Shown piece by piece: positions 50,940-53,531 of a DNA stretch of 64,000 nucleotides. The stretch's first letter is position 1. Every line of letters starts with the position of its first letter. The notes beneath the pieces were generated by a model. The model did not search any database. It saw only the letters and a list, made by a program, of their open reading frames with translations, and was not told the DNA's origin. Both the position numbers and the translations under genes were made by a program. This DNA comes from a virus, in the IMG/VR virus record IMGVR_UViG_3300036771_000052, positions 1-64,000 of that record. The stretch is one strand, 5' to 3'.

Positions 50940-51108
50940 CTCACCCTTCCGGGGTGGGGCGCTCTTTTTTTGTGCCTAAGAGCGGCCTCAGCGAGTGGCC
51001 AACATCAACATACCGTGTGGCCAAGATCAGATGGCCACCGGGGGTTGGCCGCTATAACGCGACCGTGGCCACCCCACGATGGCCACGGTCATGTGATAGC
51101 GGCCAACA
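50940..51108. promoter_or_regulatory. TGGCCA cluster with 27-bp imperfect inverted repeat
   Basis: No gene is seen. TTGGCCGCTAT-n5-GACCGTGGCCA (51045-51071) faces its complement (51080-51106) across 8 bases; only the central 5 bases fail to pair. (T)GGCC(A) half-sites also occur at about 50998, 51019, 51033 and near 51122. It lies between two leftward genes and looks like an operator cluster, or a strong cruciform/terminator. Confidence 0.6.
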
Positions 51109-51333
51109 CTACCTTGACACGATGGCCACCCTATCCCCCACATAAACCTTCATGGCCACCTGTTCCGGCCGCATCCCACCACCCATCGCATCTGCGATCG
51201 CAACCTTGGCCGCCTCCTCAACCTCATCCCATAGCTTGGTCTGTGTCACCAGGTCCAACACCGGGACCCGGATCATCCACCAGCCGTCTTCCTCGAACGC
51301 CTCGACCTTGAAGTGGATGAACGGCTCGGTCAT
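51109..51333 (-). CDS. HicB-like protein (74 aa)
   Basis: The start at 51333 follows AGGAGCACGT. FHFK-like opening (FIHFKVEAFEEDGWWMIRVP) then LDLVTQTKLWDEVEEAAKVA is the partial RNase H-like fold of HicB antitoxins (V-x-x-x-EEDG-W-x-I-x-V-P, T-Q). No HicA toxin lies next to it, so it may be a solitary anti-host or anti-toxin protein. Confidence 0.75.
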   Translation of the reverse strand: MTEPFIHFKVEAFEEDGWWMIRVPVLDLVTQTKLWDEVEEAAKVAIADAMGGGMRPEQVAMKVYVGDRVAIVSR

Positions 51334-51352
51334 ACGTGCTCCTGAAGAGAGG

Positions 51353-51385
51353 GACCCCCCGCCACGTATCCTGTGACGGGGGGTC
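51353..51385 (-). terminator. Hairpin upstream of HicB-like gene
   Basis: GACCCCCCG/CGGGGGGTC with inner CAC/GTG. On the minus strand it follows the tRNA-like pair and precedes the HicB-like gene by 20 bases, so it may end the RNA transcript or act as a leader structure. Confidence 0.6.
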
Positions 51386-51488
51386 ATATTTGGACTCGGC
51401 AGCGAGTCGATTTAACATGCGGTGCTGCCATTCCGATGTAACTGCGGAGAATCGCCACCACTGTTCACAACAGGTCAGCATGTAATGT

Positions 51489-51559
51489 CAGCGCGTGTTG
51501 CCATTGCACCACGGGACCATGTGGAGGTCCCGCCGGGGGTCGAACCCGGAATCTCGCTT
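51489..51559 (-). tRNA. Permuted tRNA-like gene 2 (3' half before 5' half)
   Basis: Read on the minus strand: AAGCG-AGATT, T-arm CCGGG-TTCGACC-CCCGG, acceptor 3' strand CGGGACC, T, CCA, three bases (CAT), then acceptor 5' strand GGTCCCG, TG, D-arm GTGCAATGGCAACAC, G and CGCTG. The acceptor strands pair 7/7 and the variable loop is 5 bases. CGCT pairs with AGCG of the upstream half as an anticodon stem, and GACAT/ATGTC and CCTGTTGT/ACGACAGG extend it. The anticodon cannot be assigned. No 5' half lies upstream and no matching 3' half downstream. Confidence 0.68.
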
Positions 51560-51640
51560 AGACATAGCCTGTCGTACTCAGATGCGGCGGATGCAGTTGT
51601 CGAGAATCTTAGAGCGTTCCTGAAGAATCTCGGGTTCCTC

Positions 51641-51748
51641 GCCTGCGTCTCTACCAGTTGGACTACCATGGCTTGTGAAGTGTTTCTTTGAGTTCCATCA
51701 CGAGTGATGGAGTGCCACGGGTAGGTCTCGAACCTACACTGTACAGAC
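51641..51748 (-). tRNA. Permuted tRNA-like gene 1 (3' half before 5' half)
   Basis: Read on the minus strand: GTCTG, T-arm GTAGG-TTCGAGA-CCTAC, acceptor 3' strand CCGTGGC and A; then about 41 bases with a CCATCA-CTCG-TGATGG hairpin; then acceptor 5' strand GCCATGG, TA, D-arm GTCCAACTGGTAGAGAC, G and CAGGC. Acceptor strands pair 7/7 (one G-U) and CAGGC pairs with GTCTG (one G-U). Upstream, AGACTCGGTACTGC/GCAGTACCGAGTCT (51745-51805) is a perfect 14-bp hairpin that competes with the anticodon stem. No CCA is encoded after the discriminator. Confidence 0.68.
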
Positions 51749-51814
51749 TCGGTACTGCTTTTTCTGGAGGATTTTCATCTTGCGCTCTTGCGCAGTACCG
51801 AGTCTAACACAGTC

Positions 51815-52570
51815 CTAGCCGAAAATGTAGTTCAGAACCTTCTCACCGATCACCTGTTCGGGTGATTCGATGCGCTTCGCTTCCTCCTTCGCCGCATGGA
51901 CAGCGTTCTTCAGCTTCGTGATACGAGTGAGAATCTGCTCCCGCTCCGAAACAGGCATCGCACCGCTGAACTTCACCCGAGTCCATTTGCCTTCAACGAC
52001 GACTTCCTGGATGGTGACGAACTGTCCGGGTTGTTTATCCGTCGGCTGGAACACGGTGACCACTTTCGGCTGTTGCGTCTGCCGCAAAGTAACCACCGGC
52101 TTCGACTTGTACACCCCCCGGCCGGAATCCTCCAACGTCCACTCGGTAGACGCCGAAAGCGTGGGGATGCGGGTGGCGAACGCTCGCAAATCGTCGAGCC
52201 TCTTATCCAGCCACAACAGATACGGCACCGGCGCGGCCTTGATGAGAGTCACCTCACCCACCACCACATCAGCCTGCGCTTTACCTGATGAGTTGGTGAA
52301 ATCTCTAGCCGCGGTGACGTCGAACAGTTCCGCCAACTGCTCCCTGGTGGCGTCGATCATCTCCTTCACTGTGGACTGGACTCGTTGTTCCTCAGGTACG
52401 AGTTCGAGTCCACCTTCCGCCGCCGGGGTGTACTCGCCGCGCATACCTTCCATCAATGCGGTCGGCTTGTCCAGCGCGTGATACCTTTCGGTCAAGCTCC
52501 GCATAACGGTTTTGCGGAGCTCACCTTCCTTCCCGACGATCGCGCCGAGAGTTTTCGGTTTCCCTGCCAT
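51815..52570 (-). CDS. Conserved phage protein, DUF7873-like (251 aa)
   Basis: MAGKPKTLGAIVGKEGELRK, SLTERYHALDKPTALMEGMR, AAPVPYLLWLDKRLDDLRAF and SEREQILTRITKLKNAVHAA match a protein common in actinophage genomes (as I recall it, DUF7873). It is soluble and alpha/beta; no enzymatic motif is known. AAGGAACACAG precedes the ATG. Its stop lies ten bases from the permuted tRNA-like pair. Confidence 0.72.
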   Translation of the reverse strand: MAGKPKTLGAIVGKEGELRKTVMRSLTERYHALDKPTALMEGMRGEYTPAAEGGLELVPEEQRVQSTVKEMIDATREQLAELFDVTAARDFTNSSGKAQADVVVGEVTLIKAAPVPYLLWLDKRLDDLRAFATRIPTLSASTEWTLEDSGRGVYKSKPVVTLRQTQQPKVVTVFQPTDKQPGQFVTIQEVVVEGKWTRVKFSGAMPVSEREQILTRITKLKNAVHAAKEEAKRIESPEQVIGEKVLNYIFG

Positions 52571-52651
52571 CTGTGTTCCTTAATCTTGATCTTGAAGGGG
52601 GGGTCGGCGGCGGCAGCAGGACTAAGCTCGCCGGATCAACGGGAACGGGTC

Positions 52652-52939
52652 ATGGCCAGCCTTTACCCCCGAAGGAATAGCGGAAAAGGAGGTTTTGACG
52701 TCCGCCGCCGAAGTCTTGGTACCTACACAGCACACATGTACGATGCATACATGGGTGAAGACATGTCACACCTCGACGGTTACCCGGAGGTGTTTGTCCG
52801 CGCGCTCGAACAATGCCTAAACGTCCAAGCGGGACTAGATGCGGTGCTTAACGCCGCGAAAACACATACAACCGATCATGCATCCCCGACCACTGAGGAA
52901 TCTCCACACCCGCAACCTCCTCAAACAGAGGTTCCTTAG
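52652..52939 (+). CDS. Possible rightward small gene (95 aa)
   Basis: Opposes the leftward genes, in the 277-base gap 52571-52847, and its end overlaps the methyltransferase gene antisense by 92 bases. MASLYPRRNSGKGGFDVRRR then MSHLDGYPEVFVRALEQCLN has protein-like composition and G/C third positions, but no proper ribosome-binding site. Unproven. Confidence 0.4.
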   Translation: MASLYPRRNSGKGGFDVRRRSLGTYTAHMYDAYMGEDMSHLDGYPEVFVRALEQCLNVQAGLDAVLNAAKTHTTDHASPTTEESPHPQPPQTEVP

Positions 52940-53531
52940 GACAATCACACGCTCCATCATGCCAACACGCGCCGGTCCCTAACAGAACATGCATCTTCGG
53001 ATCACCAGTACACCCCATACAACCTTCGCCAACATAAATGATCGTGTCACCGTCATACAGCTCCACCGTTTCATGTGGCCAATCCGCGTAGTGTTCCGGC
53101 CAACACATAAACAGTGTTCGTTCTCCCTTCCCCACCACATTGGTATGGTCGCCGGTGATGACTTCGGTGAAGGTTTCCTCGCGGAGGGTCCAGTCGGAGC
53201 CGGGTGGCGGGTTGATGTCATACGCCACCACATCCAACCCCCGCTCTCGGAGAAGAGAGGTCCAGTAGCCGGCTCCGGCGCCGATCTCGATCAAACCATT
53301 CGGGGAGTACTTGATGATCGTGTCCAAAGCTTCATCGTTGGGGATGGCCCACGACCATTGTTTCCGCATGCTCTGATAGTTGGCTTCCCCTTTAGACACG
53401 CATTCGTAACAGTATTCCTCGGGTGCTTTGAGGAGTCGTGTCATGACGGGGATGTGTTCCTTCTGATGCTCAAACATTTCTTGATAAGCATCGAGGTACG
53501 GATTCTTGGTTGCTACCGCTGTGTCAGTCAT
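52848..53531 (-). CDS. SAM-dependent methyltransferase-like protein
   Basis: Rossmann motif I LIEIGAGAGYWTSLLRERGL is followed by DVVAYDINPP (acidic residue after strand 2). The later part has YDGDTIIYVGEGCMGCTGDP and a Cys/His-rich patch (CWHDGACDCP). No DNA-methylase catalytic motif (DPPY or PC) is seen, so the substrate may be a small molecule or protein. Shares ATGA with the gene above. Confidence 0.8.
   Translation of the reverse strand: MTDTAVATKNPYLDAYQEMFEHQKEHIPVMTRLLKAPEEYCYECVSKGEANYQSMRKQWSWAIPNDEALDTIIKYSPNGLIEIGAGAGYWTSLLRERGLDVVAYDINPPPGSDWTLREETFTEVITGDHTNVVGKGERTLFMCWPEHYADWPHETVELYDGDTIIYVGEGCMGCTGDPKMHVLLGTGACWHDGACDCPKEPLFEEVAGVEIPQWSGMHDRLYVFSRR

What the first reader, a model, noticed from the sequence alone, without database searches (positions are those of the whole stretch)
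51464..51600. Extended complementary ends of permuted tRNA-like gene 2
Seen: outward from the anticodon stem, the 5'-half side continues GACAT, CCTGTTGT, GTGGTGG and the 3'-half side CCGCCGC, ACGACAGG, ATGTC, pairing in that order. The transcript ends would thus form a long interrupted helix, like halves of an excised insert. CCTG-TTGTGAA-CAG within it would even make a His-type anticodon loop. Which bases end up in the mature RNA is unresolved.
Basis: partly seen in the sequence, partly recalled or inferred. Interest (0 to 1): 0.7.

Follow-up and report, generated by a model that had tools for sequence, protein, structure and literature searches.

The report
Phage RNA with two tRNA mimics
The paired ends seen here are the base of one arm of a conserved non-coding RNA that carries two inside-out copies of the tRNA shape and travels with one uncharacterised protein, in phages and in many bacteria; it looks like an undescribed RNA-protein machine.

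Summary
The helices are real. They close the second of two circularly permuted tRNA-like domains in an RNA of about 450 nt just downstream of a DUF7873 gene (PF25283, unknown function). The pair recurs in phages of Gordonia, Rhodococcus, Arthrobacter and cyanobacteria, in more diverged form in Rhizobium, Klebsiella and Vibrio phages, and in Streptomyces, Nocardia, Ktedonobacter and other bacteria. In 41 sequences without the window, 29 of 31 pairs show compensatory double changes, including the finding's two outer helices. The model built from them finds 51446-51596 (minus), full length, 76.8 bits. Of 150 Streptomycetaceae genomes, 91 carry the RNA; all 91 carry DUF7873; 58 carry neither. In five Chloroflexia genomes RNA and gene co-occur unlinked. 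It works most like the Y RNA YrlA but scores far below that family's cut-off, has two domains and another protein. ATGTC/GACAT and the His-type loop are not conserved; nothing supports an excised insert. Rfam 15 gave no match. That DUF7873 binds the closing helices and the tRNA mimics recruit a tRNA-handling factor is inferred.

The parts
51815..52570 (-). DUF7873 protein (251 aa), likely partner of the RNA
   Evidence: Pfam PF25283, 221.6 bits against cut-off 27; co-occurs with the RNA
51353..51805 (-). whole conserved non-coding RNA, approximate ends
   Evidence: comparison with relatives; ends inferred from the stop codon of DUF7873 and the 3' hairpin
51782..51793 (-). GCGC-AAGA-GCGC, conserved 5' element of domain 1
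   Evidence: same kind of element in G003 and in Herpetosiphon L210
51745..51805 (-). alternative hairpin 51792-51805 / 51745-51758, 14 pairs here and 12 in G003 with different letters; would compete with the domain 1 stem
   Evidence: seen in two sequences only
51721..51737 (-). T-arm of tRNA-like domain 1
51666..51720 (-). domain 1 acceptor stem 51714-51720 / 51666-51672 with 41-nt cap
   Evidence: covaries with G003
51647..51663 (-). domain 1 D-arm
51593..51615 (-). conserved GCUC(U/C)A stretch of the domain 1 3' arm
   Evidence: alignment A4
51446..51596 (-). domain 2 (the finding): full-length match to model R1
   Evidence: 76.8 bits, E 1.4e-20, window not in training set
51584..51589 (-). 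outer helix, 5' strand CGCCGC, pairs with 51453-51458
   Evidence: helix 1 of A3: 6 of 6 pairs with double changes
51453..51458 (-). outer helix, 3' strand GTGGCG
51568..51574 (-). inner closing helix, 5' strand CGACAGG, pairs with 51468-51474
   Evidence: helix 2 of A3: 9 of 9 pairs with double changes
51468..51474 (-). inner closing helix, 3' strand CCTGTTG
51576..51583 (-). internal loop, 5' side (consensus AUCGAC; diverged here)
51459..51466 (-). internal loop, 3' side (consensus CUUAAACG(U)G; here GAACAGTG)
51533..51549 (-). T-arm of domain 2
51512..51532 (-). domain 2 acceptor stem CGGGACC/GGTCCCG capped by T-CCA-CAT (51519-51525)
51495..51509 (-). D-arm of domain 2
51441..51597 (-). third, outermost helix ACTGC 51593-51597 / GCAGT 51441-51445
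51353..51385 (-). 3' hairpin, 13 pairs, loop AGGATAC
   Evidence: equivalent hairpin with a GGAUA-like loop in most relatives

Best explanation
The finding is the closing stem of domain 2 of a conserved non-coding RNA that is the partner of the DUF7873 protein. Shown: two permuted tRNA-like domains in one RNA, covarying closing helices, linkage to and co-occurrence with DUF7873. Inferred: the long interrupted helices, with their conserved internal loop (AUCGAC / CUUAAACGUG), are the docking site and scaffold for DUF7873, and the two tRNA-like domains capture a factor that recognises tRNA elbows or acceptor ends, as YrlA tethers PNPase to the Ro60 homologue. In phages the RNP often sits in tRNA gene arrays and probably serves tRNA or RNA quality control, or shields tRNA from host nucleases. 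Which factor is captured is not known.
For: Window 51446-51596 matches the held-out model over its whole length (76.8 bits). 31 pairs: 94.9% of cells paired, 29 with double changes, covariation score 0.703 against 0.229 +/- 0.013 shuffled (0 of 500) and at most 0.146 when slid. 163 of 177 DUF7873 loci have at least one permuted tRNA-like domain within 750 nt downstream (95 have two or more), against 3 of 177 upstream and 4 of 177 antisense. 91 of 150 Streptomycetaceae genomes carry the RNA and these same 91 carry DUF7873. In 5 of 41 Chloroflexia genomes the pair co-occurs unlinked. Two-sequence conservation in the window's own lineage. YrlA precedent: passages of PMC8394870.
Against: No data on expression, binding or processing. 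The internal loop is diverged in the window and G003. The DUF7873 model (mean pLDDT 94) has no convincing relative of known fold, so RNA binding is not shown by homology. 1 of 41 Chloroflexia genomes has DUF7873 without the RNA at the threshold used. Six DUF7873 loci that were negative in the script scan also have no R1 match nearby: L061, L062, L122, L128, L132, L152; for L122 the RNA is elsewhere in the genome. Domain 1 arms are supported less strongly than domain 2.
Confidence: 0.6

Rival explanations
1. The RNA is a bacterial Y RNA of the YrlA family, partner of a Ro60 (Rsr) protein.
For: Same topology: permuted D, T and acceptor arms on a long basal stem (for YrlA); RF02553 is the best tRNA-like Rfam hit to the finding, 25.1 bits aligned over 1-114.
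Against: Far below the gathering score of 69; two domains; no family over gathering for this RNA in 20 DUF7873 loci; genome G000 has no TROVE match (record incomplete); in Nonomuraea G006 a separate YrlA-like pair (best 43.8 bits) sits beside a real Ro60 gene, about 10 kb from the DUF7873 pair.
Confidence: 0.1
2. They are true permuted tRNA genes whose halves are joined in the anticodon loop to give decoding tRNAs.
For: CCA is enriched exactly at positions 74-76 (65 of 178 domains against 30 of 1446 other cap offsets), with A73 mostly in domain 1 and U73 mostly in domain 2.
Against: No conserved anticodon loop or U33: in the window and G003 positions 32-33 read GA and TG (domain 1) and AC and AC (domain 2) (own numbering); the stem continues into long covarying helices; caps are often loops of about 7 nt.
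Confidence: 0.06
3. A cis-acting 3' UTR element that controls DUF7873 mRNA.
For: It usually follows the stop codon directly.
Against: In 5 Chloroflexia genomes it lies on another contig or 0.12-1.8 Mb from the gene and is still full length at about 104 bits; in the Microcoleus phage a HEARO element and an IscB-like gene lie between gene and RNA.
Confidence: 0.1
4. A self-splicing or permuted intron-exon arrangement.
For: Complementary transcript ends.
Against: No group I, group II or other ribozyme family at gathering threshold in the window or in the relaxed scan of the region.
Confidence: 0.02
5. Decoy for tRNA-cleaving nucleases (anti-defence RNA in phages).
For: Several phage copies lie in tRNA arrays; a competitive-inhibitor role is proposed for YrlA in PMC7790460 (passage seen).
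Against: Also common in bacterial chromosomes, mostly one copy each; the anticodon loop, the usual target, is absent.
Confidence: 0.12

Closest known systems
YrlA, bacterial Y RNA with Ro60/Rsr (RF02553)
   Same: Circularly permuted tRNA-like domain of D, T and acceptor arms closed by a long interrupted stem from the RNA ends; gene beside its protein partner.
   Different: Two domains in one RNA; different protein family; different internal loop; 25.1 bits against 69 needed; found beside, not instead of, YrlA-like RNAs.
Two-piece (circularly permuted) tmRNA
   Same: Permuted order with a segment between the acceptor 3' end and the 5' end (general knowledge; mentioned in PMC10085705, passage).
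   Different: No tmRNA match in the region, complete D-arms, two domains, no reading frame identified.
Permuted tRNA genes of red algae and archaea
   Same: 3' half, CCA and short spacer, 5' half.
   Different: No conserved anticodon loop; long covarying helices instead of splice sites. Family recalled; only a mention seen, in PMC10085705.

Membership tests
YrlA (RF02553) | covariance score at or above gathering (69 bits) | tested here: not met
   25.1 bits; no YrlA over gathering in 20 related loci
YrlA (RF02553) | permuted tRNA-like domain with D, T and acceptor arms | tested here: met
YrlA (RF02553) | one tRNA-like domain, 90-150 nt (PMC8394870) | tested here: not met
   two domains in about 450 nt
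YrlA (RF02553) | Ro60/Rsr partner gene | tested here: inconclusive
   no TROVE match in G000, but the record is incomplete
YrlA (RF02553) | binds PNPase | not testable with these tools
   needs biochemistry
permuted tRNA gene | 7-nt anticodon loop with U33 after joining | tested here: not met
   no U33 on the 5' half in the window or G003 for either domain; read from sequence
permuted tRNA gene | tRNA 3' end signature N73-CCA | tested here: met
   TCCA in domain 2 of the window; position-specific enrichment in relatives; not in domain 1 of the window
group I intron and other Rfam ribozymes | match to the covariance model | tested here: not met
   0 matches at gathering in the window; none in the relaxed scan
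DUF7873 (PF25283) | score over curated cut-off 27 bits | tested here: met
   221.6 bits over residues 8-250
DUF7873-linked double tRNA-like RNA (this report) | domain 2 model R1, full length, window not in training | tested here: met
   76.8 bits

The most novel reading that the evidence does not exclude
A new class of ribonucleoprotein, shared by phages and many bacterial phyla, whose RNA holds two decoder-less tRNAs: RNase P and the CCA machinery open each acceptor cap, so that the RNA carries two real, possibly aminoacylated acceptor ends (A73 on domain 1, U73 on domain 2) on a DUF7873 scaffold, and takes part in translation, ribosome rescue or tRNA maintenance.
Probability: 0.2. Interest if true: 0.92.

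Novelty: new variant of a known kind. Interest (0 to 1): 0.8.

Why it matters
It gives a Pfam domain of unknown function a likely RNA partner, adds an RNA family that Rfam 15 did not match, and shows that double tRNA mimicry is widespread in Streptomycetaceae (91 of 150 genomes sampled) and in unrelated phages. Because gene and RNA co-occur even when unlinked, the role of tRNA-mimicking RNAs becomes testable in easily grown Streptomyces and in sequenced Gordonia, Rhodococcus and Arthrobacter phages.

Tried and rejected
Sequence search of the 1.2-kb region against annotated phages gave nothing; the flanking protein was what opened the case. A search of viral contigs with that protein alone found no relative. 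A scan of viral contigs with a conserved 20-base pattern gave 9 stretches, of which only L024 (G003) is the RNA; the other 8 show no permuted tRNA-like unit by eye in the 250 bases printed on either side and look like chance matches. A coding explanation for the third-position-like differences upstream of domain 1 was dropped: by eye no continuous frame is kept. The first placing of the third-helix test missed the helix and was negative; re-placed, it was positive (5.87 against 5.06 +/- 0.15, 0 of 300); both are told. RNAalifold on domain 1 found only the tRNA-like arms (12 of 16 pairs with double changes); its closing arms are periodic CUGA/CUCA repeats that can slip, and the duplex test there is positive but modest (-20.0 against -18.5 +/- 0.44, against a control of -16.3 versus -15.9 +/- 0.41). 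Fold searches of the DUF7873 model gave no convincing match: Foldseek best E 5.5e-3 with TM below 0.2; VIA-align best Z 6.0 at rmsd 12.6; Ro60/TROVE chains were not among the rows, which excludes nothing. NCBIfam and PADLOC: no match. Partial R1 matches elsewhere (L206-L214) are tandem ordinary tRNAs or YrlA-like RNAs or were not resolved, so R1 scores up to about 50 bits are not specific. No sigma-70-like promoter was found at 51250-52700. Papers: 'DUF7873' 0 papers; other searches for a prior description showed none in the listings; the library is open-access only. Chen 2014 on YrlA was not held. Of papers I saw only search listings and the passages.

Full report
WHAT WAS CHECKED. The stretch 51440-51602 folds with these helices at -63.6 kcal/mol, z -2.7, 1 of 200 shuffles as good. 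ARAGORN finds no tRNA in the window and Rfam no family over its gathering score. A relaxed Rfam scan gives YrlA, the bacterial Y RNA, at 25.1 bits over exactly this place (gathering 69).

THE WINDOW'S OWN LINEAGE. The window is part of a 97,861-base virus record. A portal-protein search found a relative, G003, 120,119 bases, 73% identical in that protein. It has the same two permuted tRNA-like units in the same order. Acceptor stems, T-arms and the outer helices are kept, several by paired changes, for example GGTCCCG/CGGGACC to ACCCCCG/CGGGGGT and CGCCGC/GTGGCG to CGCTGC/GCAGCG.

THE LINKED PROTEIN. The gene just upstream (51815-52570, minus) is DUF7873, PF25283, 221.6 bits. Relatives lie in 73 of 50,697 phage records and 4 of 72,556 plasmid records; in 242 confirmed loci of viral contigs, best 80 kept; and in at least 481 loci of bacterial genomes, best 80 kept. 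In Rhodococcus phage NiceHouse, Gordonia phages Phendrix and Ziko and Arthrobacter phage Mimi it lies in or beside tRNA genes and is followed by roughly 400-600 bases, mostly unannotated, that hold two permuted tRNA-like units (in Ziko the script found one and the other is read by eye). A script scan of 177 DUF7873 loci found at least one such unit within 750 nt downstream in 163 and two or more in 95; 3 of 177 upstream stretches and 4 of 177 antisense stretches gave any. Some loci are near-duplicates, some end before 600 nt downstream, and some upstream control stretches are short. In the Rhizobium, Klebsiella and Vibrio phages looked at (L201-L205, L036) one or two units were found, with R1 scores of only 20-41 bits.

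STRUCTURE. Of 96 loci with two units 110-230 nt apart, 60 with short caps and complete sequence were reduced to 41. In the domain 2 alignment, RNAalifold gives 31 pairs, 29 with double changes. Counted against controls: 94.9% of 1263 cells paired, covariation 0.703 against 0.229 +/- 0.013 in shuffles (0 of 500) and 0.12-0.15 when slid. The two outer helices, which are the finding, have double changes in 6 of 6 and 9 of 9 pairs. A third helix outside them is supported. Between the two outer helices lies a conserved internal loop, AUCGAC against CUUAAACG(U)G, read from alignment A3; it is diverged in the window. In most of the 41 loci a hairpin with a GGAUA-like loop follows; the window has it at 51353-51385 with loop AGGATAC.

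HELD-OUT TEST. Model R1, built from those 41 sequences without the window or G003, matches the window at 51446-51596, minus, 76.8 bits, positions 1-150, and G003 at 81.7 bits. Ordinary tandem tRNAs reach about 30 bits in the phage's own array and 49.5 bits in one Streptomyces, so only strong full-length matches are counted in the genome tests.

CO-OCCURRENCE. Ten genomes chosen because they carry DUF7873 all carry a full-length R1 match (10 of 10; two of the ten, L140 and L166, had supplied training sequences). In 150 genomes of the family of Streptomyces G005, DUF7873 is in 92 and R1 at E 1e-14 in 91; the 91 are all among the 92. The one left over, G031, has only a 64-residue fragment of the domain. 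G138 has two of each; G144 has two DUF7873 and one RNA. In 41 genomes of the class of Herpetosiphon G009, DUF7873 is in 6 and the RNA (E 1e-11) in 5 of those 6, and in no other. In these five, gene and RNA are on different contigs (3), 0.12 Mb apart (1) or 1.8 Mb apart (1). Linkage alone therefore does not explain the association.

tRNA-LIKE ENDS. In a reduced set of 42 viral and 47 bacterial or plasmid loci (from the 96), CCA stands at positions 74-76 in 21, 19, 15 and 10 domains (viral domain 1 and 2, bacterial domain 1 and 2), against 3 of 338, 18 of 617, 6 of 276 and 3 of 215 at other cap offsets. N73 is A in 71 of 89 domain 1, and in domain 2 U in 61 and G in 24 of 89. Either RNase P-type recognition or real acceptor ends would explain this; the sequences cannot tell which. 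Common descent from tRNA genes alone seems less likely, because the stems have changed almost freely while these positions have not (inference).

PROTEIN. AlphaFold2 on the window protein with 51 relatives gives mean pLDDT 94.2. No solved structure matches convincingly by fold or sequence.

COMPARISON. YrlA has one permuted tRNA-like domain on a basal stem that binds Rsr; the domain binds PNPase and is modified by DusA and TruB (PMC8394870, passages). Jumbo phages can carry TROVE proteins, which in cells work with a tRNA-like partner (PMC7824862, passage). In Nonomuraea G006 a YrlA-like pair (43.8 and 31.3 bits) lies next to a Ro60 gene (vWA_Ro60 138 bits, TROVE 82.5 bits), about 10 kb from the DUF7873 pair. 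The two systems are thus distinct and can be neighbours. The DUF7873 RNA works like a Y RNA in architecture but is not filed as one: the family score and the single-domain feature are not met.

MECHANISM. Shown: a conserved RNA, its pairing, and its link to DUF7873. Inferred: that DUF7873 binds it through the closing helices and that the tRNA-like domains recruit a tRNA-handling factor. The domain 1 arms may slip between registers; in the window's lineage an alternative hairpin (14 pairs; 12 in G003 with other letters) could compete with them. Two sequences are too few to claim a switch.

Noticed in passing
L035 3441-3650, 3675-4952, 5070-5428: In a Microcoleus phage a HEARO RNA (129 bits) and an RRXRR-HNH (IscB-like) gene lie between DUF7873 and its RNA, which is found about 2 kb further on (35.8 bits): a mobile element seems to have inserted between the two.
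   Followed up: partly
L208 321-1985 and 2074-2336 (Nonomuraea G006): A Ro60 gene with two YrlA-like RNAs about 10 kb from the DUF7873 pair.
   Followed up: partly
L209, minus strand: An Anaerolineales genome with four permuted tRNA-like units in one 4.5-kb stretch; Rfam gave no match over gathering; part of the stretch is masked.
   Followed up: no
L163 3584-4342: A Thg1 (tRNA-His guanylyltransferase) gene near the DUF7873 RNA in an Anaerolineales genome.
   Followed up: no
L030 563-1091: Gordonia phage Phendrix carries a tmRNA match (89 bits) in the same tRNA array.
   Followed up: no
window 51044-51107: A long near-perfect inverted repeat between genes, which drew spurious microRNA-precursor matches in the relaxed Rfam scan.
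   Followed up: no
window record 96.8-97.86 kb (L006): Ordinary tRNA array at the end of the record (ARAGORN: Met, Met, Pro, Asn), about 45 kb from the permuted units.
   Followed up: partly
window 52848-53531, minus: Neighbouring gene with a weak methyltransferase match (PF13489, 23.9 bits, below cut-off; phrog_19090).
   Followed up: no
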